Assembly: GCA_963565915.1 (NCBI GenBank)
Contig: OY751496.1
Location: 3,100,001 to 3,164,000 of the forward strand
Direction: 5' to 3'
DNA from: Entoloma clypeatum
Taxonomy: Eukaryota; Basidiomycota; Agaricomycetes; Agaricales; Entolomataceae
DNA: 64,000 nt
The notes under the pieces were generated by a model, which saw nothing but the letters and a program-made list of their open reading frames with translations, ran no database searches and was not told the origin of the DNA. The position numbers and the translations under genes are program-made. Of this stretch, positions 17,605 through 59,404 are shown piece after piece (the first letter of the stretch is position 1; every line of letters begins with the position of its first letter).

Positions 17605-17634
17605 GTTACTCCGCCGTTAGACCAATCGCTGAAA

Positions 17635-18057: not shown

Positions 18058-18094
18058 AACTCATCTTCTCAGACCAGTATTCTACATTCTGGAC

Positions 18095-19399: not shown

Positions 19400-19507
19400 C
19401 CGATCAGAGAACAATGAGTTCGGAGAATGCCAGGTAGCATCTATGGGGAAGACACCCCTGCTTCTGATCTTGAAAAAATGGATTGAAGACGTAGATTAGG
19501 CGGTCAA

Positions 19508-39563: not shown

Positions 39564-41012
39564 TCACATGTTGATGTGCTTGGATCGCTTCTCAGTTACA
39601 GGATTGGATGTGATAAAGACGGAGCCATTGTTGTCTCCATAGATCGGAACTGATCCGATCTGCATTCCAAGTTCGGCAAGCATGCTTCTAAGCCATGCCA
39701 CTGCGCGACTGCAATCTGATAGCGCCATATATTCTGCTTCCGTAGATGAGAGGGCAATGGTTTTTTGCGCTGATGAAACCCATGTTACTGCTCCAGATGC
39801 CAGCGATATGAAGTAACCAGTGGTGGACTTCCTGGTGTTTTCGTCTGACGCCCAATCAGAGTCTGTGAAAGCGTAGATTCCTTTCCCGGAGTCACCATCA
39901 TACATGATCGCGTAATTTTTCGTTGCCTTCAAATATCTGCAAATATCCCTAGCCACTTCTAAATGGCGTTTGGTGGGGTTTGCGGAGAATTGAGACATTT
40001 TGATTACAGCGAAACAAATGTTGGGTCTTGTCCCAATCATTAAGTATAATAATGATCCAATGACTGATTGGTATTTGGACCTAAGTTCCGCATTGGGTTC
40101 ATCTTTGGACTTCATGGGTTTGTATCCCATCAGAAGTGGGGTATGGGTGGCATTGGATTTGCTCATCCCCATACGTGTGAGTATTTTCTCAAGGTAAGGT
40201 ACTTGATCGATGAGGATCTGCTTCCCACGTTGCCTTATTTGGATCGAGAGAAACTCTTTTGGTTCACCATCAGACACCAGGTGCCCGAGGTCCCTACATT
40301 CCCATGTTGTCATGAAGGCCTTCTTTTTCTCTAGCGTGTACTCTTGGTTTGTGCCGAGAAAAGCAGAGTCATCAACATAAATGACGGCGATTACAGTTTC
40401 CCCTTTGGTACTTGTGTGAATGAAAACTCCCGCATCGGAGTGAAGCCGGACAAAACCGAGCTTTTTCATGGAGGAATCGAGTTCCCTCCACCAGGCTAAT
40501 GCGGCCTGCTTAAGTCCGTATAGGGCTTTGTATAGTCGGTACATGAAGTGTTCTTTCCCTTTTACTATGTAGCCCTCAGGCTGTCGCATGTAAATTACCT
40601 CACGGAGTGTTCCATAGAGGAAGGCTGATGAGACGTCCAAGAATGTCATGAACCACCCTTCAAGGGCTGTCAATGCCAGAATCAACCGGATGGTCTCGTA
40701 CCTCACTACTGGTGAGAAGATCTGATCGAAGTCGATCCCTTCTACCTGTGAGAAACCTTTTGCGACAAGGCGCGCTTTCAAATGCCCGTCGGATTTTTCG
40801 TTGTAAACCCATTTGTTCCTCAGAGCTTTCCTCCCTGTAGGTAGGGGTACTAACTCCATGATCACCCCGCGGCTTTTGAGCATGTCTAGCTCTTTTCGTT
40901 CTGCCGCATACCAATCTTTGTTCGGAAGAGAGTATATATCTTTGTGTGACATTTCGATGATGCCCACTTGGATAGAGATTGCCTCCATTAGAAGATCGTT
41001 CATCCATGCCAT
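39564..41012 (-). pseudogene. Copia-2 reverse transcriptase and RNase H, uninterrupted
   Basis: 482 codons open: K-A-R-L-V-A-K-G-F-S-Q, F-L-D-V-S-S-A-F-L-Y-G, V-I-Y-V-D-D-S-A-F, G-T-R-P-N-I-C-F-A-V, T-D-S-D-W-A-S-D and S-S-T-E-A-E-Y. This is the reference that shows what is inserted into copia-1. Ends in the shared TGA after K-H-I-N-M; a further 50 codons are open beyond it (to about 39414). Confidence 0.88.
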
Positions 41013-41120
41013 TTGACCGCCTAATCTACGTCTTCAATCCATTTTTTCAAGATCAGAAGCAGGGGTGTCTTCCCCATAGATGCTACCTGGCATTCTCCGA
41101 ACTCATTGTTCTCTGATCGG

Positions 41121-42425
41121 TCAATCTGGTACTTGTTTGGGTTCCGGAGTGGGTACTTGCAGTTCATCGTCGGGCTTGCTAGATGGCAAGTCATCGTCTG
41201 ATTCAGGGTGATCCTGTCCAGTGGGAACAGGGTCGTGAGGTTTTTTGTAATGACTGTCATTGTCATCGTTTCTGGGGATGAGGTCCTCAAACTCATCAGC
41301 CGGTTCTGGGTTTTCCATTTCTGGATGGTTGTCTGGCAAAGGGTCGATGTGGCATCTAGGGTACTTGCTTTCATCAAAGATAGCTTTCCCACCCATGAAA
41401 ATTGTATTAGTCTCAGGATCCATGAAACGGTATCCTTTGACCCCTGGTTTTGATCCGAGATAAATCATCAATCGAGATCTAGACTCCAGGGAATTTCTAC
41501 GTTTTTCCTTTGGGATATACACATATGCCTGACATCCGAAGACTCTGATGCTTGACATATCGGGGATCTCATTGGTCACCCTGAAGTAAGGGGTATTCCA
41601 TTCGAGACGCTGCATGGGGGTTCTTTTGTAGAGAAACGCTGCATGTTCCAAACAGAATTCCCACCACATAGGGGGTAAGCACGCGTCGAAGCGCAAGGCC
41701 TGAGATTTCTCCACAGGGTTCGATTTATCCGTTCTGCTCTACCGTTCTGCTGGTGCTGATACGGGAGCGTGACGTCGATCAGAATTCCATGATCGGCAAG
41801 TACATCCTTGTATTCGTCAAACTCTCCACCTCCATCAACTCACCATTTTTTAGGAGTGCCGGCGAACTGATTCTGGATCATTGCAAGAAATTGTCGCAGT
41901 GCCGTGATGGCATCCGACTTCTTTCTAAGCAAGACAACCCAGACAGACGTGGGATGAAAAATCGTCCAAAAACGTGAGGAAATATTTATATTTATGGTAT
42001 GATGCTGTGGATATCTGTTTGAGATCGGAATGGATCAGATCAAAGGTTTTGGTTGCCCTTGTCATCGAATTGGGATATGACTGATTTGGCATTTTCCCTT
42101 TGAGGCAACCTGTGCAACTTTCCTGTGATTTCTCATGTACTAGTGTTTCAGGTACCCCTTTGGTACTGGTGGGAATCTTTCGGAGTGCTTGATCATTTGG
42201 GTGACCAAGGCGCTTGTGCCATGTTTCGACAGTGATTTCGCTTGAGATCGCATGGATCTGGTCATAGCATATTTCAGTGTCTAACCAGTAAATGGTTTGA
42301 CCAAGGATGTGAGGCGAAAACTGGATTTTGTTCAGCCCTTTGGAGATATTGAGTTCTCCACAAGTCCCATCTACTTTGTAACCATGGTTAAGGAAGATGC
42401 CTAGGGACAATAGGTGTGTGTCCAT
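41121..42425 (-). pseudogene. Copia-2 integrase, same frameshift as copia-1
   Basis: Frames 41925-42425 and 41121-41714 mirror 18095-18595 and 18806-19399, with the same break after F-L-D-D-F-S-S-H-V and the same stop after the second-Asp region. Confidence 0.85.
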
Positions 42426-42462
42426 GTCCAGAATGTAGAATACTGGTCTGAGAAGATGAGTT

Positions 42463-42885
42463 TTAATTTCCCCGTTTCAGGGTATGCCGTACTGGAACGG
42501 CCCCAACTCCTAATATTTCCAGTTTCTTCCCTTTAGCTGCAGTTTGGACAAATCGCTTGACCGTGAGAGGTCTATAGTATGTGAAGTCTTTAAACTCATA
42601 GGTGAAGTGTAACGAGGCGCCGGAGTCTAATATCCACTGCGCGCGTTCTTTTTCCTTACAGCGTGTACAAGAGGCAAAATGTTTAATATATTTTTTGTGT
42701 AGATCACTGCTGAAGTGATCTACGCACTCTGTAGTGGTACTAGCTAATATATTATACGTCTGTTGAGAGGCATAATTAGCTTTCCACATTTGGTAAGGTT
42801 TAAGAAAAGGGTTTGACGGACCGTCAAGTTCTATTTTGTAATCAAACTCATCCGGCCCCATCCATTCCTGGTCGATGTCCATCAT
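42463..42885 (-). pseudogene. Copia-2 aspartic protease
   Basis: As copia-1 (D-S-G-A site); the Cys pair reads C-T-R-C here against C-T-H-C there. Same terminal stop. Confidence 0.85.
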
Positions 42886-42915
42886 TTTCAGCGATTGGTC
42901 TAACGGCGGAGTAAC

Positions 42916-43696
42916 TCAACGCTGTTTTGATGGCCTCTCGTCGATGTCTGGAATGATAGTGTCCAAGATATGAAGGTTCGACCCAGAGGGTCGTGCGCCG
43001 ATTTCTCGGGCAAGCTTTCGCACTTTCTCGTTCTTTTTCCATGCTGACGGCTTTCTGGAAGGAAGCCCGGTATACTGAGAAGGAGGCAGGTTCATGCATT
43101 GCAGGAGTGACTGCATTCTTTCCGACTCAGGCTGTGCGGTACTTGAAGTTTTCCTGTGACCTGTTATAGTGGTAAAGGCAGGTGCATGACGAGGAGGTTG
43201 CTCAATGGCCGGTGCAATGAACTCGACCATCTCCTCGGCATGGTCGGAGTTGTTGTCTACATTGTTGGCGCGTTTCTTCTGGTTGCGCCAGCGTCCCTTT
43301 CCCTTCTTCTTTTCAGAAGCGGTACTTGGGTCGGTCGAGTTAGGCTGCTCGTCAGCGTTGTTATGCGAGGTACTCGGCGCTGTCTGCTTTTCCCATTTGG
43401 GGTCTTGCCCCTTTCGCTTAGTCCCGGAGATTTTCCAGGCCTGCTCATTGGACGCCCGAGTAGACCCTATCGCGTACTTGCACCTGTACTCTGAAACGAT
43501 GCTGTCAGTGACGGCCTGCCATGTGAAGTTGTCGGCATCATAGACCTGAAAGAGGGCGGTGGAGAGAGACGACCAAGCGTCAGGAATGGCACTTGCCAAG
43601 ATCATAGCCTGCATCAGATCAGGCACAATGAATTTTGAGTCGCTAAGGCGAGCAAAGAGTGACCCAAGGCGCTCGATTTCTGAAACAGGGTCCCGA
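42916..43696 (-). pseudogene. Copia-2 gag, 3' part
   Basis: Equivalent to 16825-17604. The open frame runs a few codons into the LTR of element C, but copia sequence stops at 43696 and resumes at 57743. Confidence 0.85.
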
Positions 43697-44977
43697 TGAT
43701 AAGGCCGCGATGCGTCTAGGCCTAAAATCTGCGCGTTTTGCACCCTTTCACACTATCTCTAAGGGATATAGAGAGTCCTAGATGAGCTCCGATTCTGAGG
43801 ACTTAGTGGCGACGTTAGAGAGAGAGACCAGCGACCCTGGCAATGTAGGACATAGCGCTGGTCACCACTATGGGCTTAGCTATGATACTCGAGAGCTATG
43901 GGATCGTCTCGCGAGATAGAAAAGACTATTGAGTGCCTCTCGCGACGAAGCGTGAAACAAGGAGATGGGTTATATTGGAGTTATCGATGACACTAGCACT
44001 GTCTACCATACATCGGGGCTTGACCGGAGACATTCTCACGAGAGGTTTGGTCAATGTGCGCTGTGCTCCACGTCCAAATCGTCCATATCAGGAATATCGA
44101 AATGACATCAGATGATACAGACCGAGATCGGGTTTGATACGTTGCGATCAACGTGACCTTATGGTGAACTTTGATAGGGACCGAATCTGATGGGTGGCTT
44201 ATCAAGGCGACCCTTAATTGATGCAGCTGATACCTCACGGTAACTAATCGGCATCGTCCTGGGTACATCGCAAAACCAAGATATTGAAATAGTGGCCTCT
44301 CCAGTGTGGCAGAGGTTTGGATATGGAAAAGGGGCGTACCTGTGGCGTTGTCTACCACATGGGCGCATCGAAACGACTCTAGCGAAGGTCACTTGACTGG
44401 ATACCATTTATCGATACCACATGCAACCTTTTTCTATATTTATTGCTGCTCATGTATAAAATCTCGTAGTTTCGTGGTAGATAGGTTAGGTTAGATTGTG
44501 CCCCAGAATTGATAGCATTTGTCTTGTGCATCTGTCGTCGTTCGCGAGTATCATTGAAGCCTCGAGATCGTTTGGTTTGCATCGGAAGTCAGTCGCAATT
44601 GTGTTTTGTGTGTTCGAGAACTTGTCAATCGTCAAATTGTGTTATCTATCAGTCGTATTGGTCATTGTTGTGTTCGTATTTGGTCGAGATCGTGTTCGCG
44701 AAGTCTTGTTGGTCCGGAAGTCACAAACCTCGGTTCATTATCTATTGAGAACTATCTCTAAGTCTTGTTCAAGACCTATCGAGCCATCGCTAAACGAGTT
44801 ATTCAATTGTTGTTTGAAAGAGTCGCATCCTGAGTGATCCCACTCATCACCCCGAACTATATCGATTGAGAAGTACACATCACGAGACTTGTTCGGTCTT
44901 CGTTGTTGTGTTTGGTGTTTGTGTGTGTGATAGAGATATCGCTCGCGCTCATCCCCAGACTCACTTCCTTCGTTTCA
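43697..44977 (+). repeat. Element C 5' LTR
   Basis: 1281 bp. The two differences noticed from the 3' copy (CCGCG/CTGCG near 43705; CACGTCC/CACATCC near 44072) are both CpG transitions. It contains TTCTATATTTAT and TGTATAAAATCTC boxes (about 44430-44465) and four TCGCGA sites. Confidence 0.93.
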
Positions 44978-44979
44978 TC

Positions 44980-44996
44980 TGGAGCCCACCGCGAGG
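44980..44996 (+). other. Element C primer-binding site
   Basis: Two bases after the LTR comes TGGAGCCCACCGCGAGG, the reverse complement of a sequence ending in CCA, hence a normal tRNA 3'-end primer site. The tRNA was not identified. Confidence 0.65.
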
Positions 44997-44997
44997 G

Positions 44998-45460
44998 GTG
45001 GTTCTAAAATAACAAATTTACTCAGTATCGGCTCGATACAGTTCCTCTCAAGGAATTAGTTATAGTTCTCGCTTGAGAGATAACCCTGTCCTCTACAAGC
45101 AAACCCACTGTTGCATCTAGCAGCAAACTCGTTAAAGCAAACTTGTGGAAGCCTCCAGTTCATAAAAGAGGTCTCGTGAGTAGTCATAAACCGAAGACAA
45201 CGTCTCTAAAAGCGTCATCTTCAAAAGCAACAAATTCACAATCTATTGAAACGGCTCGCGAGCGCGTGACCCGTAGTCTATCGAAAGCAGGAGCAGAACT
45301 AGTAGGACCTCTCGAAGAGCCCATAAAGCATACTCGAAAGAGAATACTAGAAAACCTTGAATCGGAAAGGCTACTAGCATCGCGAGAGCATTCAGTATTC
45401 ATTGTGCAACCAATACAAACTCAAAATCAAAATCTTAACAGTCAATTGTCGACATATACA
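44998..45460 (+). other. Element C leader
   Basis: Open in the gag frame from about 45143 but without ATG until 45461. The peptide would be basic and Ser/Lys-rich. Probably untranslated leader or non-AUG extension. Confidence 0.4.
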
Positions 45461-47116
45461 ATGGCTACAAATACACAGAATGTTGCTGCAACTGCACCAA
45501 GGAATGGTTTGAGAATGCCGCGTTGAAGTGAACGAGGAGCGCCGAGATTTGATAAAGAAAAAGCCTCCGAGCTTTTAAGATTCATTGATGAAGTCGAAAT
45601 CTGCTTTGACCATGCAGGTATAACCGATATTGTGGAAAAGAAAAAGTTAATCGGAGACTATGCAGATAGTGTCTCCGAAGAAGAATGGACAACCCTCGAT
45701 TCCTACGCTAAAGGAACATGGGAGGAGTATAAGAAAGAGTTAATAAACAACTACCCAGTGGTAGCGAGCGGACGCGACGGTACCTTGGCCAGATTATCGA
45801 GTATCTGCAAGGAGCACAGTCGTCTGGGACTAGGAAATCTGGATGAAATTATGTCCCTAAAACGTAGTTTCAAAGCCGAAGCTAAGAAACTGACCGGTGC
45901 AAATGGTTGTATCTCCAATCGTGAGCTCGTGGGGAGGTTCTTGAGTTGTTTAAATGACGACTTCGCAGAAGCGGTCAAGTTGAGATTGTCCATGGTGGAC
46001 ACCGCGGCCACAGCAAATAATGCCGCGGCACCTGCAGTGAGACATCAGGATAATCTCGTAGACTTGAGTGACATAATAGAAATTGTCGAGAAAATGGCGA
46101 GGCACCATAACGGTTTCACTGCTTCCAATAATTATACGTCACGGGCCGCTCCCTCCAATGTTGCTATTCCTATGTCCAATCCGTCATCGGCGGTAAAGAT
46201 CGAGCAAATGCTTGACTCTGTGGCGCAGAGTCAGGCATTGTTGACCGATAGAGTTGAAGGCTTCGAGAAATCTACGCAAGGAATTATGAAAACGCTTCAA
46301 GCGATGCAGGCAGGCCCTCAGCAACAGTACAAACAGGAACCGCGAGTGGCACCCAGTGGTGGGGCGCCTCCGGGATGTTGTCACTATTGCTACAAGCCGC
46401 ACCATTTCCTTCGAGAGTGTACCGAACTTCAGACGCATCTAGCGCAAGGAAAAATTAAAGCCACCCCACAAGGGATCCGTTTGCCAGATGGAGGCTACAT
46501 TCCTCGCGAGCCTAGTAATATTAGTCAGAAGGATCGGGTAGAGCAATTGTCGGCCAATAAGCAATTGTATCAAGGATATTTCGAAGACGAGCAAGCTCCT
46601 GGCCTACTCAACCTTGCGCAAATACAGGACAATTCAGACTACTCTCTGTTTACAAATAAGCCTCGCGATCAGCGAGACGAGAATCTGCGGTTGATGCAAG
46701 AAGGGATGGCCAAGCGCGACCAACAGATCGTGGCATTGAACAATCTCATAGCGCAACAACAGGCCGGTACGGCAGTCCCACCGTTAAACCCAGTTCAGCA
46801 GCCATTTAATAATTTCAATATGTATACGCAACCATACGGTACTGCTCCGGCGGTTCCCGTACACTATACCCCAGTTCAGAATTCTTTTATGTCTGGAATA
46901 TCAAACCCAGTTCCCCAAATTGTGGCACTGCAGAATCGAGTCGCGATGCCGGGAATGATGCCAGTCCAGCAACAGTTACCCATCAATGAGCCTGAGGGTA
47001 CTTCGGGAAAGCCTGATATGCAGGAAGCATTCCTCGCAATGACTAAAGTGATGCAGGACATCAGTCAATTCGTAGTCACCCGATCGGGGAACGCCAAGAA
47101 GGAATCGGGTTTTTAG
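45461..47116 (+). pseudogene. gag: Element C gag, one in-frame TGA
   Basis: From the ATG at 45461 (M-A-T-N-T-Q-N-V) the frame meets TGA at 45524-45526, then is open for about 530 codons. The capsid-like part has L-L-R-F-I-D-E-V-E-I-C-F and L-R-F...W-T-T-L-D-S-Y-A. One CCHC knuckle reads C-H-Y-C-Y-K-P-H-H-F-L-R-E-C. A Gln/Pro-rich tail ends at TAG. The TGA could come from CGA by one C-to-T change. Similar long gags with a single knuckle are known from agaricomycete retroelements. Confidence 0.75.
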
Positions 47117-48402
47117 AACGTTCGAGGAAGGCGAAGCAGATTCCAGCAAGGTCTTGGGTTGAAAAGAATCGTGCCAAATCGCCGGAGAAACGGACTGAAA
47201 ACCGAGACCCAGATAGTGAAACAGAAAATGAAATAGAAAAAGATATTGAAGAAGTCGAGGAAGTAGATAGCGATGATGATGAGGCAGAACCTGAGTTAAC
47301 GCCGAAGCCATCGGCCAAGACAAAGTCTGTCACCCAAAAAGATAGTGACCGAGCGTTTACCCGCGAAGAAGTCACTAGACCAGCAGTTGATTTGCCGTTT
47401 CGTGATGTACCAGAAGTCGCTTTCGTTCCCCTTGGTAAAAATAAAAGACCCGACCGCGAGACCATCCCCGACGTTGATTGAAAGGGACCGGCGTTTCGCA
47501 GCAAGGCACCTATCGAAGAACAATTGAAGGGTGTCGCGGTCTCGGCAGTGCTCGAGACTCCGATCACGATTGCATTGGGTGATTTATTGAGGGCAGATAA
47601 AGTAGTACAAGAGGAATTGCGAAAGCTATTGACTAGGAAGAGAGTACCTGCGAACGTTTGAGCGTTGAACCTGCTAGATTCAATGGACGACAGCCAGTTG
47701 TCATATTGGAAAAAGTTTGCCCAAACAAACGAACTAGAAGATATAGTTAAAGTAGATGAATTGCCAGTGGCGTCGTTCATGATCATGGAACAGACTATAA
47801 ACAACCTACCTGTCGGTTCGGTGGTCATCTCGGACCCCGTCTTACAGTATCTCGAGAGTTTGCCGCCTGGGACAGCACCTAAATCAGTATATGTCGCACA
47901 GGAATCGCAGAGTCTTCGGACAGTAAGTGCCGTGGTGAATGGAATGATGGAAGAACAGTGTATTCTTGATGGAGGCTCCCAGATCGTCTCGATGTCGAAG
48001 GCTGCAGCCGTCGCGATGAGGCTTTCGTGGGATCCAGATATATGCATCCATATGCAAAGTGCCAATAAGCAAATCGAAAAGTCGCTGGGACTATCGCGAA
48101 ATGTGCCGTTCCGTTTTGATCACATTGTAGTCTATCTGCAGGTCCATATTATAAATGAGCCAGCCTATAGAGTGCTTTTGGGGCGACCTTTCGACGGGGT
48201 AACTTGTAGTAATTATCAAAATGATAGAGATGGAGGACAACTCCTGACCATCAAGTGTCCGAATACTATTCAGAAGATCACGATTGCGACGTCGGAACGA
48301 GGAAAGGATCCTGATCTATTGAAGAGGAAACGGCCCACCACTGAAGCAGATGGTACGGGTTTTCAATCTTTGATGAACTGGTCGGCCACCAGGGAGAGAT
48401 AA
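47117..48402 (+). pseudogene. Element C linker and aspartic protease
   Basis: After gag the frame shifts. An acidic linker (D-P-D-S-E-T-E-N-E-I-E) is followed by TGA near 47481 and another near 47659, and then the protease region 47665-48402. The active site reads C-I-L-D-G-G-S-Q-I-V-S-M-S, with D-G-G where aspartic proteases have D-S/T-G. R-V-L-L-G-R-P-F-D is the usual second landmark. The end is out of frame with the RT frame that follows. Confidence 0.7.
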
Positions 48403-48443
48403 TTATAAACATCGATTCTAGCGATATTGAGAGACCATATATA

Positions 48444-49796
48444 ATGGCTTATGGCATTGCGGAAAATGGAAAATTTACGAGAGACGAAATTAGAGACCTG
48501 TATCTCGAAGCGTCGCGAGATAGTGTCGCGGACGAGAACGCACAGGTCCTTTTAGGGGCATATTGGGACGGAAAATCGAGGGAACATCCAGAATGGCATT
48601 GCGATGACGAACAAGAAATATTAGACCAATATCATGGTGGGATTGTACAAGTGCTAGCAGGTAAGAAATATAAACCCGTCGACAAGAAGGTGCGACCAGT
48701 ATTGGGAGAGTTGTCCGAGACATTTCACATAGTTCGCAAGATAAAAGGGGACCCCCTTGCGGAGTTACCAAAGTTGAACCCAAAACCACCGGGGTTTGCG
48801 CCCAAGGGTCGCTACACCCAGGAAAGGATGGAGCACATGGACAGTATACACGACCATGATTTTCTCTGGAAAGAAGAAATGAAACTAATACATCATTTAT
48901 TGAGTGAACAGAATCAGGCTTTTGCATGGGATGATTCGGAGCGTGGTAGCTTTCGCGAGGATTTCTTTCCTCCGGTACAGATACCCGTGGTACCGCACAC
49001 TCCGTGGGTACTAAGAAATATTCCTATTCCGCCTGGGATACATGATGAAGTGTGTAAGATAATAAGGACAAAGATGGCCGCGGGCGTGTACGAACCGTCG
49101 AATTCCTCATACAGATCCCGGTGGTTCTGTGTATTGAAAAAGGATGGCAAGAGTCTCCATATCATACACAGTCTAGAACCGTTGAACCAAGTCACTATAG
49201 CACATTCGGGCCTTCCCCCGGCAACAGAGGAATTAGCCAACCATTTCGCGGGACGTGCTTGTGGTGGAATGTTCGATCTCTATGTGGGATATGACGAGTG
49301 CAAGTTAGCGGTCCAGTCTCGCGACTTGACTACATTTCAGATGCCATTCGGTGCTCAAAGATTGGTCACTTTACCAATGGGTTGGACAAATTTGGTACCG
49401 ATCTTTCATGATGATGTTACACATATATTGCAGGACGAAATACCAGATGTTACTATTCCCTACATCGACGATGTGGCGGTTCGCGGCCCATCTACGCGAT
49501 ACGAGTTGCCTGATGGCAGATACGAAACTATAGAAGAAAATCCAGGCATTAGGCGATTTGTATGGGAACATGTACAGAATGTGAATAGAGTGTTACAGAG
49601 AATGCGATATAGTGGAGGAACGTTCTCTGGGTATAAGTCGCTAGTATGCGCGGGCGAGATAGTGGTAGTTGGCCATCGTTGCACGTATGAAGGACGGAGA
49701 CCCGAGACAGATAGGTTCGGAATTATCAGCCGCTGGGGACCTTGCAAAGATATACATGATGTGCGGTCGTTCCTTGGAACGGCTGGCACTTGTTGA
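48444..49796 (+). pseudogene. Element C reverse transcriptase
   Basis: 450 codons; upstream of the ATG at 48444 the frame continues (G-E-I-I-I-N-I-D). RT blocks: S-R-W-F-C-V-L-K-K-D-G, the P-x-G block Q-M-P-F-G-A-Q-R-L, T-L-P-M-G-W-T-N, and the catalytic P-Y-I-D-D-V-A-V. Stops at TGA (49794-49796) inside the F-L-G-T...N-F-I-R-D-F motif, a place where a one-base CGA-to-TGA change explains the break. Confidence 0.85.
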
Positions 49797-52217
49797 AACT
49801 TTATTAGAGACTTCGCGAAGAAGGCGGAACCTCTAGTCAAGTTGACGCGAAGTCGTGAACTCTTTGTCTGGGGATCTGAACAGGAGAAGGCCATGCAAGA
49901 CATAAAGGATGCTTTAGCGGCGTCCCCCGCAATCAAGCCAATAGATTATCATGGTGGAGGTGCGGTGGTCCTTTGCGTAGACTCCTCGTGGCGGGCGGTT
50001 GGATTCTATATCTGTCAAGAGGAGGAGGGTGATTCTAAGAAGAGGACATATGCGAAGTTCGCATCGATAACACTAAACGAGCGTGAGGCGAGGTATTCGC
50101 AACCAAAGCGAGAATTGTATGGTTTATTTCGCGCATTGAAAGAGGCGAAGTTTTGGCTCTTGGGCTGTCGGAACCTAGTTATAGAGACCAATGCGAAGTA
50201 TATCAAGGGGATGCTCAATAATCCTGGTCTTGGACCGAACGCTGCTATAAATCGGTGGATTGATTACATTTTGATGTTCCACTTCACACTAAGGCATGTG
50301 CCAGGCAAGACCTTCGCACCCGATGGTCTATCGAGGCGAGAAGCGCAACCGGGGGATGAAACCTACCATATCGAGGAGGACTGGGTGGATGAACCAGATG
50401 GACCGCCACGGTACGAGTATCCTGATAAGGAAAATGGTATCCCTAATGCGGAAAAGAATGACCCGTTAGAGTTCGACGATTTTAAAACAAAGATAGACAC
50501 ATGCGGTGGTTATCTTTGGGCTACGTCAGTTGAAGACTTCCGGGGAGAGCTTGCTGATGCTCGCGAGAGATCGAATATTGAACGGTTATATCTTGGGCGA
50601 GTGTGTAAGGCTGGACTGCTCTCGCAATTCGTGGGGGAACCGGCGTTGCCCGACGACTCTTTGAAATGGGATGAATCGATGCGAGAACCTTATGATGAGG
50701 ATCATCGCATGATAACCGCGAAGTTGCAGGATGACCGCATTCCTGACATCAAAATTTGGCTCAAGGACCCTTTTGTGAGACCAAACGGCCTGAATGACCG
50801 ACAGTATAAACAGTTCGCGCAGCGTGTGAGACGATTCTTTGTCGCTGATGATGGCTGGCTCTATAGAAGAGGTAGCGAGGGAAAGCACAAACTAGTGGTC
50901 GAGAAGGGGCATCACATGTACATGATGAGGGCGTCCCATGATAGCCTTGCGCACCGCGGCTTCTATGCAACAAAGGAGCTTATTGCGCAAAGATTCTGGT
51001 GGCCAGAATATGAGCGCGACGTTCGCCTATATGTCCAGACTTGTCATATATGTCAGCTGAGACAGAAGACATTGGTTCGCATTCCTCCTATGGTAACCCA
51101 TACGCCGGGTCTGTTTCAGGTCCTGCATGCCGATACGCTACACATGACGCCGGCGTCGAACGGTTGTAAATACATTGTTCACGGCCGCTGTGCACTATCG
51201 ACATGGATGGAAGGGCGGCCGCTAAGGCAAGAAACGGGTCGGACTGTTGGGCACTGGCTCTTCGAAGACATACTATGTAGGTGGGGCGGTATGGTAATGA
51301 TTGTGACTGATAACGCGGGGCCATTCAAGAAAGCTTTGGCCTGGATAGAACAGAAGTATGGAATTAAGGGGATTATGATATCGGCTTATAATTCTAGAGC
51401 AAATGGATGGATCGAGAGGCCGCATTGGGACGTTTGTCAGGCTTTGTTTAAGGCCACAGGCGGTGATATCGGCAAGTGGTTCTGGTTCTTCCACCATATG
51501 ATGTGGGCAGATAGGATCACGATTCGGAAGGGTTTGGGATGCTCGCCATATTTCGTGTGTACAGGGGCGCATCCCATCCTTCCCCTAGATATTGTTGAGG
51601 CGACGTGGCTAGTGAAACTTCCAGATGGGCCGCTGTCAACGGCGGACCTGATCGGATTTAGGGCTCGTGCACTCGCGAAGCACAAAGTGCACGTCGATGA
51701 GATGCGTAAGCGGGTTACGCATGCCAAGATGACAGCGGTACTTCGTTATGAGCAAGAGCACCGGCATAAAATCAGAGATTATGACTTTAGAGAGAGAGAT
51801 CTAGTGTTAGTCCGCAATACAGCGGTTGAAAATAGTCTCGACAAGAAAATGAAGCCCAGGTACTTCGGTCCTATGGTGGTCGTCGCGAGGAATAAAGGTG
51901 GAGCATACATCATCGCGGAACTGGATGGGTCGGTATGGCATGAGAAGGTTGCAGCATTTAGGCTCGTTCCCTACCATGCGAGATGTGCCATTGCAGTCCC
52001 TAAAAGGGTGTTAGACTTCATCGATATTACAAAAGCGACATTGGAAGGATTGAAAAATTCGACCGAGACTGCTAAGGACAGTGGTGAGGACCTGTGGTTC
52101 GACGGGACGAGGCTGGACATAGATAAGAATGACAGGTTTGAGGATACGCCTCGCGAGGTTACCGTAGATGATGCGGGGGCAGTCTCGGACGAGGATTCCA
52201 GCTCGGATGATGAATGA
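49797..52217 (+). CDS. Element C RNase H and integrase
   Basis: Open from just after the TGA to 52217, about 800 codons. RNase H: C-V-D-S-S-W-R-A-V-G-F, R-E-L-Y-G-L-F-R-A-L. Integrase: H-D-S-L-A-H-R-G-F...C-H-I-C-Q-L-R-Q-K finger, then the catalytic triad in H-A-D-T-L-H-M, V-T-D-N-A-G-P-F and N-G-W-I-E-R-P-H. The C-terminal tail is acidic and has no chromodomain, unlike families A and B. It would be intact if f the TGA were read through. Confidence 0.85.
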   Translation, partial: NFIRDFAKKAEPLVKLTRSRELFVWGSEQEKAMQDIKDALAASPAIKPIDYHGGGAVVLCVDSSWRAVGFYICQEEEGDSKKRTYAKFASITLNEREARYSQPKRELYGLFRALKEAKFWLLGCRNLVIETNAKYIKGMLNNPGLGPNAAINRWIDYILMFHFTLRHVPGKTFAPDGLSRREAQPGDETYHIEEDWVDEPDGPPRYEYPDKENGIPNAEKNDPLEFDDFKTKIDTCGGYLWATSVEDFRGELADARERSNIERLYLGRVCKAGLLSQFVGEPALPDDSLKWDESMREPYDEDHRMITAKLQDDRIPDIKIWLKDPFVRPNGLNDRQYKQFAQRVRRFFVADDGWLYRRGSEGKHKLVVEKGHHMYMMRASHDSLAHRGFYATKELIAQRFWWPEYERDVRLYVQTCHICQLRQKTLVRIPPMVTHTPGLFQVLHADTLHMTPASNGCKYIVHGRCALSTWMEGRPLRQETGRTVGHWLFEDILCRWGGMVMIVTDNAGPFKKALAWIEQKYGIKGIMISAYNSRANGWIERPHWDVCQALFKATGGDIGKWFWFFHHMMWADRITIRKGLGCSPYFVCTGAHPILPLDIVEATWLVKLPDGPLSTADLIGFRARALAKHKVHVDEMRKRVTHAKMTAVLRYEQEHRHKIRDYDFRERDLVLVRNTAVENSLDKKMKPRYFGPMVVVARNKGGAYIIAELDGSVWHEKVAAFRLVPYHARCAIAVPKRVLDFIDITKATLEGLKNSTETAKDSGEDLWFDGTRLDIDKNDRFEDTPREVTVDDAGAVSDEDSSSDDE

Positions 52218-52415
52218 CCGGGCTCGCGGGACTTACTTTGAAGGAAATCACCACTGGTATGATCTCGCGAGGCCTAGGGCCATGTTGGAATGACTTAGCA
52301 ATCATATTGAACGCCTATGTGCCAGCAGAGGAAGACCTGTATTACGGACTATACAGTAAAAACCTCTACAAGGGGACATGTGGCTTTTGCGGTGGCAGGA
52401 AAGGTGAAGGGCAGT

Positions 52416-53785
52416 CTACTCATACTGCTCCTTCAATTCGGAGAGGAGAAGGTTGTGTCGCTGCTTAAGGTATTGTGCATACTTTAAGTTGTAATCAAGA
52501 GAAGAAATTGTAGTGAGAAATTGGGATCGGACGAGGGTCTCGGTGTCACGAAGGGACTTCTCGGTGTGTGTCAAGGGCATCTCCAGGATCGACCCAGTCT
52601 CCGAGAGGATCTTGTTTGCAAGAGGATTGTCCATCGCGAAGCGAGTGGCTGCGGGGTGACATATTAGCTTGGATAAGGAAGGCGGATACATTTAGTATGG
52701 TACCTTCTTTGTGGAAATTGCCTCGCTGCTCCACTTGTGCTGGTCCCTGTCCTTGAACGGGGCTTCTTTGGTCTCCAGCCGCGGTTTCTTGTTGGATTTG
52801 GGACCCGGGGCCGATTTGCCCTTCGACCCAGATCCTTTCTGTGATATGGGGAAAATTAGCGGAGATTGTCGGGGGCAGTATGTCGACGTACCGTGCCGGA
52901 CGATGATTTCTCCGTCGGGGGAGCTGTAACGGACTTCTTGGCAGACCCATCGTCCGCAGTAATGGGATGGAGGGTCTCGGGGTCGACGTCCATCTCCTTG
53001 CACAGTAGCGAGAAGCGGCTTCAATACCATTGGAAGTTGGAAGGTAGTATACAAATAATGACAGACCTCATGATCAGATTCATCATCTCGCGATCGCTTA
53101 CGAGGTTCGGCGGGGCGCTCGGCGTTTCCATCGCTGTCGTCGCTGTCCCCGACTGGGTTAGTTCGGGTTCCGCGGCGGCGGACGGGCTGTTTGCATCCGG
53201 GATATTAGAGACGTCGAGATTGAGATCGGCGTCGGGATCAGTTACCTTGACCTGGTCGAGCCATTCAATTAGTGCGGGGGACGGACTCCAGCTCTCGCGT
53301 CGACTCACTTCGGGTTTCTCGCTGTTGGCCGGAGGATCACTTGCAGGTGGAGGCGCGGTCTCCTCGGTGGCTGTAGGTCCTTGACGCAGGTATCGTATGT
53401 ACGCGACCATGTCCTTGAGGGTAAAGAACATGGGCGGGAGTCTCCAAGACTTGTTCTTGTCATGGAACGCCTGTAGGCCGTTCCTAGCTACGAAAACATG
53501 GTCCGCGAGTTGTGCGTCCTTGAGGTACTCATTGGAAATATGTGCATGACGGAGATTTAGAGGCTGACGGAATAGTTGGAATGGTCAAACAAGGTTCGGT
53601 GCGCTGTCGCGACGTACTTTGAGGTTGTCATACGCGTACCGACAGATGAGGTATGCTTCGGAGCAGGTTGGCAGTTTCTTGGGGGGTGCCTGAGGATCGT
53701 CCGGGAATGAACCGATGAGCGAGGCTAAGACCTTTTTCACGGCCTGGGTTTCGTCTTCGTTAGACATCTCTTTTAGAGGCGGCAT
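52416..53785 (-). CDS. Element C antisense gene A, about 392 residues
   Basis: Minus-strand exons 53785-53618, 53563-53067, 53018-52892, 52838-52704 and a last exon ending at TAG 52416. The first three introns are normal GT-AG (about 48-54 bp) and keep frame. The last border keeps frame only with a very short 36-bp intron (exon from 52667); the more natural 55-bp acceptor would shift it. Peptide: M-P-P-L-K-E-M-S-N-E-D-E, then a folded-looking part (E-A-Y-L-I-C-R-Y-A-Y-D-N-L; H-V-F-V-A-R-N-G-L-Q-A-F; M-V-A-Y-I-R-Y-L-R-Q-G), an acidic Pro/Ser/Thr-rich region, a Lys-rich patch and a C-terminal helical part (Y-N-L-K-Y-A-Q-Y-L-K-Q-R). No known family. It lies downstream of pol and tail-to-tail with it. 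Confidence 0.6.
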
Positions 53786-54459
53786 GTGACCCGAGGGCAA
53801 GTTTGTCTAGCGGTGTTGATTTGTGCTAGGGTGAGGGTAGAGTTGACTCTTCGAGTGGTCGCGGGCTTTTATAGCTTCCCTGGCGACTTAGTAACAAAAG
53901 TTTTTTTTGAGGCCGTGCTATACCGGATGGTAGTGGCACCCGGGATTGCGTGGTTAGGCACGGCGGTTCCCTCTACGAGGGGATAGTCAGTCCTTGTGAT
54001 AGTCGACAGGGGTACCTTCGTGATGCTAGTTTTGCCTTCACGGAATAGAGCGATGTCCAACTCGGAGAGTTGTATTCTTTAGTGTGGGGGAGTGGGGGGT
54101 CGCGAGCCTGTTCCAGTACAATTGCAAACCTCAAATCGCCATAAATGAAACAGAACATGAAAGAGCGGAATCTCGGAAGGAGATATCAGAAAGACATAAT
54201 CACCATCAAATAGATATACCAAACCCCTGAGTGCCAAACAGCATAACGATCAAAGTAAAACGAGACTTCGTCCAACGTCTTCGCGATAGACTTAGAAATA
54301 CTGTAGTTCTGAACAGGAGGCCCTTAATGGACTTAATCAAAGAACGAAGAAAAGCAATATATTTGGGCGTAAGCCCCCAGCGAGTGTATACAGAGAAAAT
54401 ATAAGGGCGTATAGCCCGCGACATGTGCAAATATAAAAAAGAAAGAAGGCCCGCAGTAC
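53786..54459. other. Element C, spacer between antisense genes A and B
   Basis: No coding frame trusted. Should contain the promoter of gene A (right of 53785) and the 3' end of gene B. Several TCGCGA sites (about 54103, 54281). Confidence 0.4.
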
Positions 54460-56102
54460 CTAGGCGACATCGCGAGACGACCCCTGAACGAACAGATCCT
54501 TCGCGACTTCATCGGCCTCTTCCTCCACAGGGGAGTCCTCGTCAGAAGCCGAGTCTGATTCATGGACAGGCGAAACCTTCTTGACAAAGATGGGATTCTC
54601 GTGGGAGGACTGTTGACCAGTGGGAGGGTCGAATCGAGCGAGGCCAAAGACTTCGAAGAGCTCCTGGCGAGCCCCCTCATCAGCTACCAGGCCCTGAGGA
54701 AAGTCGCCCTCGCGACGATACAGCTGAGCCAGCTGGTGAAGGAAGTGGGTAATGGACCGCTCGCGACGAGCGGCGATGGCCGACAAGGCTTCCGAGAGGT
54801 GGAAGTGGAGAGCAGTCGAGGCCTGGATGTCGACAAGAGTCTCGCGGATGGCTGGAAATAAATTGTCAGTGGCTAGAAAGAGGGCAGATGGTAGAACACA
54901 CCAGCCGTGCTCGATTGACCGAAGGCGTGGGCCATGGTCGCGAGGAGTTCCGCACGTTCACCACTCACCTCAAAAGAGCACCCTACCCGGCTACCGCTCT
55001 GGCAGTTGGAGCACTTCTTGCCCCAACCTTGGAAACGGCAGCGAGCCGCACTTGGTCCACCAGCGCAAATGAGGCAGGGAAGGCTGGGCTAAGAAAAGTC
55101 ATATTTAACTATAGAATGAGTCAGGAAGAAAGAAAATGTACCACAACGGGCAACGCAACACGGAGTTGTCGCAACTCATCTGCCTTGAGGGCAGTACCTT
55201 CTTTCGCGTTGACCTGCAGTTCTTTCGCGACCGTGGCGGGTTTCGGTTCGGGTTGAGGAGGGGGCCTCGCGGGCGCTTTCTGAGTGGCCGCGGGCGCTGT
55301 TACGACACGGGGCTTTTTAGCGACGGGTTGAGGTCTGGCGGGGGTGTGCACATCAACCACCTCGACGACGTCGTCCTCGCTGTCTGCTTGCAAAGCTTGA
55401 CGACCGATATCGGAGCGACGTTTCTGGAAGGAAATTTAGTAAGAAGTAAAAGAAATGATCAGGAAGTTCACCTTGAGAGCTCCCTGACTGGGAGGCGAAT
55501 GGGGAGCCACACGCTTACCGCTAGCACGGGTCACAGGCTTAGATCGTGCAGCGCGAGAGGTCGACTTGTTCTTGTCCTCGATGTTGGGTGAAGTTGGACT
55601 GGCAGTCATGTACTCCACGCCTTTTGCGATGAGCTTTGCGGGTCGTTTCCCGCTAGAGATGGACGGTTCGGGGACGGGGACGGCCTCGTCCTCTTCCAGT
55701 AGGCGATCCTGCATAAATGTAATGTGGAAATTAGCAAAACAAATAAGCAAACGACTCACCTCGGGGAGGTCTTGGAGGGTTTGCCCATGAAGGTCGGGCC
55801 ACCATTTCCACCAGCGGCGGTCCATTGTGTAGCCGGAGCGGTATAAGTTGTACGCGATGGTGTTTAAGAGCCGCTTGGCGTAGTCATCCACACAACCTGC
55901 AGCCGCGACCTGAAAGAAGAAATGTTTGAGTAGGAAATGGGGTCTCGCGAGCATCACTTACCAGTGTATCGTGAAGTTCTGATAAGATTTCCCGAATCCG
56001 TGCTTCTCCGGACTTGCGGAGTCGGTTGAGATCGGTGAGGATATTGAGTTCGACCTCGAATTTAGAGAGGCGAGTGTAGAGCTCGTTCGGAGACGTGGTC
56101 AT
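54460..56102 (-). CDS. Element C antisense gene B, Zn2Cys6-like cluster protein, 462 residues
   Basis: Six minus-strand exons join without a break: 56102-55962, 55909-55760, 55708-55472, 55423-55142, 55088-54902 and 54851-54460; all introns GT-AG, 49-53 bp. Start ATG at 56102 (M-T-T-S-P-N-E-L), stop TAG at 54460-54462. Domains: helical N-terminus (about 1-47); W-rich part R-R-W-W-K-W-W (near 80); disordered basic, Pro-rich part with K-K-P-R (about 100-265); a Cys cluster at residues 275-307 with spacing C-x2-C-x8-C-x8-C-x2-C-x7-C; helical region; acidic C-terminus (S-D-E-D-S-P-V-E-E-E). The cluster resembles fungal Zn2Cys6 domains (C-x2-C-x6-C-x5-12-C-x2-C-x6-8-C) but has two extra residues in the first gap. 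A nuclear DNA-binding regulator is inferred, not shown. Confidence 0.75.
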
Positions 56103-56461
56103 GTTGAACGAGAGGAAAAGTGAGAACTGGGGAATGAGGCAGACTGCCCCAGCCTTTATGGGAATTGGAAGTCTCGCGAGGCTACTGCGGAGGAAGTTAT
56201 CTGTCAAAATCCATCAGTGTGGAGTTAGGTCGCGAGAACGGCAAACCTTTGATGTTACTTGGTATAGGCGAACATGAGGCCAGTGGGGGCCGAGTGCGGA
56301 CTTTGTGTGTCCACAGTGCGGCATGTCAAATGGGGCCGTCTCGCGAGAACACGTTTTGAGGTGGAACTCGAATATATGGAAAGCGGTGCTAGAGTGGACT
56401 GGTCATATCACTGTTGTTAGATAGGATTGACTGGGACAGTCAGGATTTAGTGTGGGGGAGA
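56103..56461. other. Element C, region upstream of antisense gene B and polypurine tract
   Basis: Promoter region of gene B on minus; holds three TCGCGA sites within about 170 bp (56174, 56230, 56341). Ends with GTGGGGGAGA, the polypurine tract before the 3' LTR. Confidence 0.55.
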
Positions 56462-57742
56462 TGATAAGGCTGCGATGCGTCTAGGCCTAAAATCTGCGCG
56501 TTTTGCACCCTTTCACACTATCTCTAAGGGATATAGAGAGTCCTAGATGAGCTCCGATTCTGAGGACTTAGTGGCGACGTTAGAGAGAGAGACCAGCGAC
56601 CCTGGCAATGTAGGACATAGCGCTGGTCACCACTATGGGCTTAGCTATGATACTCGAGAGCTATGGGATCGTCTCGCGAGATAGAAAAGACTATTGAGTG
56701 CCTCTCGCGACGAAGCGTGAAACAAGGAGATGGGTTATATTGGAGTTATCGATGACACTAGCACTGTCTACCATACATCGGGGCTTGACCGGAGACATTC
56801 TCACGAGAGGTTTGGTCAATGTGCGCTGTGCTCCACATCCAAATCGTCCATATCAGGAATATCGAAATGACATCAGATGATACAGACCGAGATCGGGTTT
56901 GATACGTTGCGATCAACGTGACCTTATGGTGAACTTTGATAGGGACCGAATCTGATGGGTGGCTTATCAAGGCGACCCTTAATTGATGCAGCTGATACCT
57001 CACGGTAACTAATCGGCATCGTCCTGGGTACATCGCAAAACCAAGATATTGAAATAGTGGCCTCTCCAGTGTGGCAGAGGTTTGGATATGGAAAAGGGGC
57101 GTACCTGTGGCGTTGTCTACCACATGGGCGCATCGAAACGACTCTAGCGAAGGTCACTTGACTGGATACCATTTATCGATACCACATGCAACCTTTTTCT
57201 ATATTTATTGCTGCTCATGTATAAAATCTCGTAGTTTCGTGGTAGATAGGTTAGGTTAGATTGTGCCCCAGAATTGATAGCATTTGTCTTGTGCATCTGT
57301 CGTCGTTCGCGAGTATCATTGAAGCCTCGAGATCGTTTGGTTTGCATCGGAAGTCAGTCGCAATTGTGTTTTGTGTGTTCGAGAACTTGTCAATCGTCAA
57401 ATTGTGTTATCTATCAGTCGTATTGGTCATTGTTGTGTTCGTATTTGGTCGAGATCGTGTTCGCGAAGTCTTGTTGGTCCGGAAGTCACAAACCTCGGTT
57501 CATTATCTATTGAGAACTATCTCTAAGTCTTGTTCAAGACCTATCGAGCCATCGCTAAACGAGTTATTCAATTGTTGTTTGAAAGAGTCGCATCCTGAGT
57601 GATCCCACTCATCACCCCGAACTATATCGATTGAGAAGTACACATCACGAGACTTGTTCGGTCTTCGTTGTTGTGTTTGGTGTTTGTGTGTGTGATAGAG
57701 ATATCGCTCGCGCTCATCCCCAGACTCACTTCCTTCGTTTCA
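56462..57742 (+). repeat. Element C 3' LTR
   Basis: 1281 bp, near-identical to the 5' copy. Followed by CCGA and the resumed copia-2 gag. Confidence 0.93.
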
Positions 57743-58007
57743 CCGACCAGACAGTTTGAAAGAGGCTGTGGCTTTGAAATCGCCAAATATGGTGGCGGGG
57801 GAGACCTTTGAGTATGTGTCTTTCAATGATGTCCAGGCTTCTTTTGAGGACTTGGCGTCCTTGATGTGCCTCCTGATCGCCTCGGAGACTTTGAGGCAGA
57901 TGGAACCCAGAGCCATGTCGTCGTCCCTGATCCAAATCTTCCTTTCCTTGTGGAAGGCGGGTTGGTCGACGGTAGTGGTGACCACTGGAGGTTGGGTTGC
58001 AGATGTA
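57743..58007 (-). pseudogene. Copia-2 gag, N-terminal part
   Basis: About 88 codons with the UBN2-type gag pattern: D-D-D-M-A-L-G-S-I-C-L-K-V-S, S-K-E-A-W-T-S-L-K-D-T-Y, F-K-L-S-G-R. Joins directly to 43696 across element C. Cut at its 5' side by the Tc1 element at TA (58006-58007). This segment is absent from copia-1. Confidence 0.8.
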
Positions 58008-59404
58008 CAGTGCCTCACAAAACTGATTCAATGTTTGCTACTTTGTGAATACCTTCAAAATAACTTTGCAAATAATGCCAATCAAAAGAAGGTATTGGTA
58101 CCTGGTTAAAAGCCCTGCTTCAGGACTCTCGGAATCTGCAATAATTCCCACAAAGAATGATCAATATATGATCAAATTACTCCAGGGACTCATTGAATCA
58201 GTTTTGTGAGTATGTACAATAAATACAGTATTTTATACTTTAGTACTTGGTATTACCCCCCTTAGCTTTGATTACTGCCTCTACCCTTCTTGGCATACTT
58301 TCTATCAGGTTTTGACACACTTCTGGCTCTATATTATTCCACACCTCTGCTGCTCTGTTCCCAAATCTCCCAGACTCTCTTGGGTGGTGTTGGATATTCA
58401 TTCAACTTCCTTTTAATATGAACCGAGAGGTGTTCAATAGGATTGAGATCTGGGGACTGTGCAGGCCAATCCAGCAGAGCAATATTCTTGCTGTCCATCC
58501 ATTTTTTGGCCTTCTTGGAGGTGTGCTTGGGGTCATTGTCCTGCTGAAAAATGATCTCCTCTTCAGAGATTCCACTCTCCTCCATGCTGGGCAGCAAATT
58601 GTCCTCCAAAATGGACACATACTGATCAGCATCCATCCTCCCCTCAACCTCTGCAAGTCTCCCCACACCTTCCCAACCCATACAACCCCAAACCATAATA
58701 TTTCCTCCCCCAAACTTGACTGTGCCCTGAACCTCTCTTTCAATAAGCCCCTCACCCTTCTTTTTCCAGACCCATTCCTTGCCATCTGACCCAAACCTGT
58801 TGATTTTGGTCTCATCTGACCAAATGACCCTCTTCCAGTCCTCCACTGTCCATTCCCTGTGCTTCATAGCAAATGCCAACCACCTCTTCCGATGTATGGC
58901 CTTTAAGAAAGGTCTTTTCTTCTTTGTTACAGCCTTGAATTCATGTTTTCTGAGAACCCTTCTCACAGTTTCTGGGGAGACAGGATTGGAGATGACAGTG
59001 TTGATGTGTTTGGTAGCCTGCACAGCATTGGAGGCTCTCCCTGAGGTGATTTGTGAAAGTATGTTTTGTATGTTGGTGGGAGAAAGCTTGGATGGACGAC
59101 CACCAGAAGAGAGATTGTGATGAGGAAGAAGATTCTGAAGCACTCTGGAGACAGTTGGTTGGCTGACACCCAGGTTAGAGGCAATATGACGAGTGGAGTG
59201 ACCATTGGAGACCAGAGAAAGAATGTTTTCCTTGTGGGAAGAGGAGATAGGGCACATGATTAATTATGGAGGCTGTTGAGGTTGGATTCTTCTTATACAA
59301 CTTTCCTTGACAACCCATCAGGGTTCTATTCAAGTTCCATCAGTAAGTCATGACAACTGGTTACCATACAACCAGTGAAGCATTTGATTCTGATAATTGC
59401 CATA
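58008..59404 (-). mobile_element. Tc1/mariner-type DNA transposon, right end missing
   Basis: Left end CAGTGCCTCACAAAACTG follows TA in copia-2 gag. An 18-base stretch of this end (58016-58033) recurs inverted and perfect at 58190-58207, so the left non-coding part can fold into a hairpin. Transposase lies on minus. The matching right terminal repeat is not found before gypsy-A2 starts at 59405, so that element probably inserted into this one. Confidence 0.75.
58240..59257 (-). pseudogene. Tc1/mariner transposase, C-terminal frameshift
   Basis: ATG at 59257. N-terminal paired helix-turn-helix (H-I-A-S-N-L-G-V-S-Q-P-T-V-S-R-V; G-R-P-S-K-L). DDE core: V-I-W-S-D-E-T-K-I-N, I-F-Q-Q-D-N-D-P-K-H-T, and D-L-N-P-I-E-H-L with the 34-residue spacing of DD34E Tc1 elements. 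The main frame ends at 58334. The usual tail (W-N-N-I-E-P-E-V, then K-G-G-N-T-K-Y) is present in another frame and ends at TAA 58240-58242, so one indel near 58355 broke the gene. Otherwise open: recently dead. Confidence 0.88.

What the first reader, a model, noticed from the sequence alone, without database searches (positions are those of the whole stretch)
43697..57742. Fungal gypsy retrotransposon carrying two spliced genes on the strand opposite to gag-pol
Between the pol stop and the 3' LTR, 4.2 kb holds two minus-strand multi-exon genes (52416-53785 and 54460-56102). Gene B joins six exons without any break while gag-pol of the same copy has at least four in-frame TGA codons and a frame change. 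The LTRs are almost identical, so the insertion is young and the genes move with it, unless captured just before. Antisense accessory ORFs are known from some plant gypsy groups; I know of none like these in fungi. Introns in the minus genes would survive retrotransposition because the element RNA is the opposite strand, which explains why they are kept.
Basis: partly seen in the sequence, partly recalled or inferred. Interest (0 to 1): 0.92.

Follow-up and report, generated by a model that had tools for sequence, protein, structure and literature searches.

The report
Spliced antisense genes in fungal retrotransposons
A family of jumping genes in this genome, probably a fungus, carries two intron-containing genes written on the opposite strand, and comparison of its copies indicates that natural selection has kept them as working parts of the element; whether they are expressed could not be tested here.

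Summary
The element is exactly 43697-57742: LTRs of 1281 bp with 2 differences, 4-bp target duplication. Minus-strand gene B is open across six exons (462 aa). Minus-strand gene A is also a six-exon gene, but its window copy is broken by a 10-bp deletion that 20 of 20 other copies lack, and its conserved start is 53767, not 53785.

The genes belong to the family. Of 30 pol copies with an intact 3' end, 26 run straight into gene A; none of the other four is a clean gene-less element. On internal tree branches the N/S ratio is 0.43 of the neutral expectation for B (p 9e-8), 0.38 for pol and 0.59 for A (p 0.006; weaker overall). Wrong frames of B and pol show no such constraint.

A second gypsy family in this genome (gag 32% identical, LTRs 100% identical) carries other antisense multi-exon genes, with protein-level relatives beside a third pol and at one further locus.

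Antisense accessory genes are known in plant gypsy elements and in fungal Boty (brtn), so this is a new variant of a known kind. My reading: nuclear accessory proteins, B probably nucleic-acid-binding through a six-cysteine cluster. Expression is untested.

The parts
43697..44977 (+). 5' LTR (1281 bp)
   Evidence: 99.8% identical to the 3' LTR, TG...CA ends, TSD CCGA
44980..45000 (+). primer-binding-site-like stretch TGGAGCCCACCGCGAGGGGTG just after the 5' LTR
   Evidence: sequence; the same stretch follows the 5' LTR of the second family; tRNA not identified
45077..47116 (+). gag region, interrupted by TGA ending at 45526
   Evidence: 27-32% aa identity to gags of other families over most of the length
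47662..48402 (+). protease-like part of pol
   Evidence: weak Pfam gag-asp_proteas/Asp_protease_2, below cut-off
48345..49796 (+). reverse transcriptase part of pol, ends at an in-frame TGA
   Evidence: weak Pfam RVT_1, below cut-off
49797..52217 (+). RNase H and integrase part of pol (806 aa)
   Evidence: Pfam RT_RNaseH_2, RT_RNaseH, Integrase_H2C2 above cut-off; 1604 relatives at E<=1e-10
52416..53767 (-). gene A, six exons; window copy has a 10-bp deletion in exon 5
53868..53873 (-). TATA box (TATAAA) 106 nt upstream of the gene A start
   Evidence: kept in 20 of 21 copies
54460..56102 (-). gene B, six exons, 462 aa, intact in the window copy
54902..55088 (-). gene B exon 5 with CX2CX8CX8CX2CX7C cysteine cluster
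   Evidence: each of the six cysteines kept in all copies readable at that codon, 20 or 21 copies
56449..56461 (+). polypurine tract AGTGTGGGGGAGA
   Evidence: same tract in the second family
56462..57742 (+). 3' LTR (1281 bp)

Best explanation
This is a Ty3/gypsy element family whose genome normally includes two protein-coding, intron-containing accessory genes on the strand opposite to gag-pol, between pol and the 3' LTR. SHOWN: the genes are at a fixed place in the family, keep their introns, and their frames were under purifying selection while the element was spreading (strong for B, moderate for A). INFERRED: they are transcribed from minus-strand promoters of their own (a conserved TATA box lies upstream of A; none was identified for B); the introns survive because the packaged RNA is the plus strand, where they cannot be spliced. 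INFERRED, my committed mechanism: both proteins act in the nucleus (basic stretches such as RKRSRDDE and KKPR; B has a six-cysteine cluster) and regulate transcription, silencing or integration of the element, as has been proposed for antisense proteins of plant gypsy elements and as retroviral HBZ does. I put the protein-coding accessory-gene part at about 0.9 and the nuclear-regulator part at about 0.4.
For: Fixed position after pol in 26 of 30 pol 3' ends. All five B introns GT-AG in 16 of 16 full copies, all five A introns in 20 of 21. B open end to end in 9 of 16 full copies, A in 6 of 21. Parsimony N/S relative to the neutral expectation, 16 copies: B internal 0.43 (p 9e-8), terminal 0.86; pol 3' part (12 copies) 0.38 and 0.67; wrong frames on internal branches 1.37 and 1.93 for B, 1.32 and 1.19 for pol. 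A with 21 copies: internal 0.59 (p 0.006), exons 1-2 all branches 0.58 (p 2e-4), wrong frames of exons 1-2 0.95 and 1.39. 3' flanks: 10 of 10 loci with a readable LTR end share no similarity by BLAST, and the window's, compared by eye, differs too, so these are separate insertions. Six cysteines and TATA box conserved. No non-element relative of the tested exons (A exon 2, B exons 5 and 6) in the genome beyond one chance-level match. A second family with identical LTRs also has antisense multi-exon genes inside its LTRs, with protein-level relatives on C11, antisense beside a related pol, and on C8.
Against: No RNA or protein data were available. Gene A support is weaker: with 16 copies the internal-branch test is borderline (0.66, p 0.049), its +1 frame gives 0.73 (p 0.11), and terminal branches look as constrained as internal ones; with 21 copies exons 3-5 (0.84, p 0.15) and exon 6 (0.74, p 0.12) are not significant over all branches. 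A is broken in 15 of 21 copies, the window included. A codon-composition scan did not favour the antisense strand clearly (227 minus against 207 plus in the A/B region; 191 against 243 in the second family). The cysteine cluster has no Pfam or PDB match and its single-sequence model is useless (pLDDT 45). Three of seven second-family copies lack most of one antisense gene, so it is not needed in cis by every copy.
Confidence: 0.75

Rival explanations
1. The antisense transcript, not the protein, matters: A and B loci make minus-strand RNA that pairs with element RNA and tunes or silences it; the reading frames are relics.
For: Antisense non-coding transcripts are known for other retroelements (PMC7264820 section 8, passage seen). 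A conserved TATA box lies upstream of gene A.
Against: Substitutions respect codons in the proposed frames; B's shifted frames show no constraint; six cysteines are invariant where readable.
Confidence: 0.08
2. Captured host genes carried as passengers, with no role for the element.
For: Intron-containing genes in antisense orientation are what capture of genomic DNA would give; some elements are known to transduce host genes (PMC7264820, passage seen).
Against: No non-element homologue of the tested exons (A exon 2, B exons 5 and 6) in the 60-Mb genome; constraint persists on internal branches; present throughout the family as far as seen.
Confidence: 0.1
3. A and B serve the host (cargo or domestication), and selection acts for host benefit.
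For: Constraint alone cannot tell element benefit from host benefit.
Against: Many near-equivalent copies, most of them decaying, with terminal-branch relaxation for B, is the pattern of an element gene.
Confidence: 0.07
4. Chance reading frames opened by permissive splicing.
For: With free choice of GT-AG introns long frames can be built in many sequences; a composition scan gave similar total coding scores on both strands of the A/B region and a higher one for the sense strand in the second family.
Against: Frame-specific constraint with shifted-frame controls; protein-level conservation of the other antisense genes between families.
Confidence: 0.03

Closest known systems
Boty-like gypsy elements of Botrytis cinerea with antisense gene brtn (Zhao et al. 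2011; title seen in reference lists of PMC8365987 and PMC4227169; paper not read)
   Same: Fungal LTR element with an extra gene antisense to gag-pol between pol and the 3' LTR (PMC7264820 section 5)
   Different: One antisense gene is named for Boty, with a chromodomain in gag-pol (PMC4227169 passage); here two six-exon genes per element, and no chromodomain match in the window pol parts scanned. Sequence relation to brtn and its intron content not tested.
Plant gypsy elements with antisense aORFs: maize Grande gene23, rice RIRE2, Silene Retand (TRP28)
   Same: [quoted passage not shown] Grande gene23 is transcribed from its own promoter and its product is nuclear (PMC7264820 and PMC11963269, passages seen)
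   Different: No TRP28 or other Pfam domain here; the word intron does not occur in either paper's main text, whereas here each gene has five introns
HTLV-1 HBZ antisense gene (mentioned in a PMC11963269 passage; splicing recalled)
   Same: Antisense gene of a retroelement encoding a nuclear regulator
   Different: Retrovirus; no sequence relation claimed; a works-like comparison only
Fungal Zn2Cys6 transcription factors (PF00172; spacing recalled)
   Same: Six cysteines in order C-x2-C ... C ... C-x2-C ... C in gene B exon 5
   Different: First loop is 8 residues where the recalled pattern has 6; no Pfam or PDB match

Membership tests
Ty3/gypsy LTR retrotransposon | LTR pair, short target duplication, polypurine tract | tested here: met
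Ty3/gypsy LTR retrotransposon | pol with RNase H and integrase downstream of RT | tested here: met
   RT_RNaseH and Integrase_H2C2 above cut-off in 49797-52217; the RT match upstream is below cut-off
Antisense-aORF gypsy elements (aORF-3R) | extra gene antisense to gag-pol between pol and 3' LTR | tested here: met
Antisense-aORF gypsy elements (aORF-3R) | present in most copies of the family | tested here: met
   26 of 30 directly; of the other four, two interrupted by insertions, one keeps B exons, one has remnants 5 kb on
Antisense-aORF gypsy elements (aORF-3R) | conservation similar to other element proteins | tested here: met
   B 0.43 against pol 0.38 on internal branches; A weaker, 0.66 with 16 copies and 0.59 with 21
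Antisense-aORF gypsy elements (aORF-3R) | transcribed from its own promoter; nuclear product | not testable with these tools
   only a TATA box upstream of A, kept in 20 of 21 copies
Retand lineage | TRP28 domain (PF04195) in the antisense ORF | tested here: not met
   no PF04195 match
Zn2Cys6 cluster (PF00172) | six cysteines at the family spacing and Pfam match | tested here: not met
   six conserved cysteines but a different first loop against the recalled spacing; no Pfam match
Boty/brtn | sequence homology to brtn | not tested

The most novel reading that the evidence does not exclude
A whole lineage of fungal gypsy elements carries exchangeable modules of spliced antisense regulatory genes: A+B in one family, an unrelated-looking set (A2 and its paralogue D) in others, some copies losing a gene and probably relying on siblings. 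These would be HBZ-like nuclear regulators that evolved independently of retroviruses and are kept by selection at the level of the element.
Probability: 0.4. Interest if true: 0.75.

Novelty: new variant of a known kind. Interest (0 to 1): 0.62.

Why it matters
In the papers I saw, antisense accessory genes are described from plants and from one fungal family, with unknown function. Here are two intron-rich antisense genes per element, with frame-specific selection measured among copies of one genome, plus other antisense genes conserved at protein level between divergent families of the same genome. That makes the open question of what such proteins do for the element testable in a fungus, and it warns that such genes could be annotated as host genes.

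Tried and rejected
Homology of A or B to known proteins: Pfam, PDB sequences for B exon 5 and the large protein collection (A exon-2 frame, B) gave nothing significant. The collection does hold relatives of this pol (1604), but its length filter and intron-broken predictions make the negative for B weak.

Homology of gene A to the antisense genes of the second family: I thought I saw it by eye; tblastn, HMM search and profile comparison did not support it (where 39 of 100 column shuffles scored as well). Rejected.

Structure of the cysteine cluster: pLDDT 45, not searched further. L032 looks like a nested copia element and was no use. A short antisense segment (L031 986-1545) shared with a third gag family at 72-78% is not clearly coding; frames differ. 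No relatives of pol in viral contigs. Gene A start at 53785 rejected. The codon-composition scan did not separate the strands. A basidiomycete precedent was not found in the listings (open-licence papers only; listings are capped at 10-20 titles each; six papers were opened, for passages or one section).
Full report
WHAT IS THERE. The window is G000:C15:3100001-3164000 of a 60.1-Mb, 20-contig genome. The element spans 43697-57742. Its LTRs are 1281 bp each and differ at two sites; the flanks give a 4-bp duplication CCGA. It appears to sit inside a copia-type element: frames with a weak copia-gag match flank it.

GENE MODELS. Gene B joins six exons through five GT-AG introns of 48-53 nt into 462 aa with one terminal stop. 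Gene A also has six exons (introns 53-70 nt). The acceptor of A exon 4 is the least certain junction (my choice among AG sites). The window copy of A has lost 10 bp in exon 5 that 20 of 20 other copies have. A TATAAA box 106 nt upstream of the A start is kept in 20 of 21 copies. The gag-pol of the window copy is broken by at least two in-frame TGA codons and by frame changes; I did not confirm four TGA codons.

COPIES. A DNA search with 52416-56102 returned 51 pieces, 16 of them full length including the window, at 91-100% identity; 40 of 61 candidates were scored, so this is a lower bound. Of 30 listed pol copies with an intact 3' end (40 of 79 candidates scored), 26 continue into gene A 108-118 bp further on, or at 17 bp where the start of the region is missing. 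Two of the others enter the A region and are then interrupted by other repeats (L029, L030). One has B exons 2-4 about 0.6 kb after pol, so A is missing there. One has remnants 5 kb on, not inspected. No clean copy without the genes was seen. The 3' LTR end was readable in 10 of 20 fetched loci; their flanks share no similarity by BLAST, and the window flank differs by eye, so these are separate insertions.

AGE. The window LTRs differ by 0.16%, but the nearest other copy differs by 1.9% in the A/B region and the median by 2.9%. The genes were therefore in the lineage before this insertion.

SELECTION. Changes were placed on a tree of 16 full copies by parsimony and compared with an expectation that uses the mutation spectrum of the non-coding columns, CpG apart. 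Observed over expected N/S: B internal branches 0.43 (76 N, 82 S; p 9e-8), terminal 0.86 (218 N, 117 S; p 0.1); internal against terminal p 3e-4. Wrong frames of B: 1.37 and 1.93 on internal branches. The 806-aa part of pol (12 copies): 0.38 internal, 0.67 terminal; wrong frames 1.32 and 1.19. Gene A: 0.66 internal (45 N, 32 S; p 0.049), 0.67 terminal (p 0.002); its +1 frame gives 0.73 (p 0.11) and its +2 frame 1.40. With all 21 copies holding A: 0.59 internal (58 N, 46 S; p 0.006), 0.74 terminal (p 0.005); exons 1-2 over all branches 0.58 (p 2e-4; wrong frames 0.95 and 1.39), exons 3-5 0.84 (p 0.15), exon 6 0.74 (p 0.12; internal branches alone 0.36, p 0.03). An earlier count of shared against private changes agrees. 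B is therefore constrained almost like pol; A is constrained, mainly in exons 1-2, with weaker evidence. Caveats: recurrent CpG changes, possible gene conversion between copies, several tests, and one genome only. A crude codon-composition scan did not separate the strands: 227 minus against 207 plus in the A/B region, 191 against 243 in the second family.

INTRONS. All five B introns keep GT-AG in 16 of 16 full copies and all five A introns in 20 of 21. This is expected if copies pass through plus-strand RNA, in which these introns cannot be spliced.

PROTEINS. B exon 5 holds CX2CX8CX8CX2CX7C, and each cysteine is kept in all copies readable at that codon (20 or 21). It resembles but does not match the recalled Zn2Cys6 spacing, with no Pfam or PDB match. 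A has acidic and basic low-complexity stretches (RKRSRDDE, KKPR) and a probably helical C-terminus (inference). Searches of this genome with A exon 2, B exon 5 and B exon 6 found element copies, one remnant on C2 and one chance-level match. The protein collection gave nothing for the A exon-2 frame or B.

OTHER FAMILIES. The gag search showed other gypsy families at 27-32% identity. One, on C14, has LTRs of 1191 bp that are 100% identical, a CCGG duplication, and the same primer-site-like and polypurine sequences as the window element. Between its pol and 3' LTR lie about 5 kb with minus-strand multi-exon genes. Seven copies reach through this region (an eighth piece covers its first 891 bases only); three of the seven share a deletion of L031:2026-3740, which removes most of the gene I call A2. 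Whether those three are separate insertions was not tested. A2 exons have protein relatives at C11 (39-42%) and C8 (32%). At C11 they lie antisense to and downstream of a pol end 80% identical in DNA to that family; the element context of the C8 locus was not examined. A second gene, D, is also shared with C11 (44%) and is a paralogue of A2. Between C14 and C11 mismatches concentrate at third codon positions: A2 exon 2 29/20/39, D exon 1 28/14/41, D exon 2 9/11/21. C11 against C8 gives 14/12/28 and 16/10/23; C14 against C8 shows no such excess (29/23/29). In the C14 copy the A2 exon-2 frame is 118 aa against 135 in three other copies, so that copy probably has a frame shift; not examined. These genes are not detectably related to A or B, so the architecture is shared but homology is not shown.

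KNOWN WORK. [quoted passage not shown] PMC11963269, passages; PMC8365987 and PMC4227169, passages). PMC3248453, a survey of fungal LTR elements, has no occurrence of 'antisense' (passages), nor has PMC3411680 on Laccaria. I found no report of a basidiomycete case, or of antisense genes with several introns, in the listings; the library holds open-licence papers only, and Zhao et al. 2011 was not read.

MECHANISM. Shown: place, frames, introns, constraint, separate insertions. Inferred: minus-strand transcription from own promoters, nuclear action, regulation of the element. The alternative that only the antisense RNA matters is disfavoured by codon-level constraint. Host cargo cannot be excluded but fits the decay pattern less well.

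Noticed in passing
57743-57746 and 3' flanks of L010-L012, L014, L016, L017, L019-L021, L023: The first four bases after the 3' LTR have CG in the middle in 9 of 11 insertions; the second family also has CCGG. Suggests an NCGN target preference. Both sides of the duplication were checked only for the window and C14 elements.
   Followed up: partly
45077-49796 and G000 gag copies: Window LTRs are nearly identical yet gag-pol is broken; three other gag copies have the same 529-aa open frame length. The copy may have been moved in trans by a sibling, or the TGA arises repeatedly.
   Followed up: no
L031 2026-3740; G000:C1:290948, C5:56091, C15:3454413: Three of seven copies of the second gypsy family share one internal deletion removing most of antisense gene A2, with a 12-13 bp overlap at the join: gene-deleted derivatives.
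   Followed up: partly
L033-L036 (G000 C12, C2, C9, C6): Another gag family has a segment about 4.3 kb after gag start that is 72-78% identical to an antisense segment of the second family; the spacing suggests elements short of a full pol.
   Followed up: partly
48345-52217 and proteins P0001-P0120: This pol belongs to a large clade (1604 hits). Of the 120 listed, 118 have neither RVT_1 nor the integrase core among their precomputed Pfam domains; in the window RVT_1 is below cut-off.
   Followed up: no
16920-19887 and 40633-43600: Two inverted copia-type pieces of 2968 nt with 100% complementarity flank a chromodomain gypsy at about 21.6-28.1 kb; much of the window is nested transposons.
   Followed up: no
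58334-59263: Open frame for a Tc1/mariner-type transposase (HTH_Tnp_Tc3_2 and DDE_3) just beyond the element.
   Followed up: no
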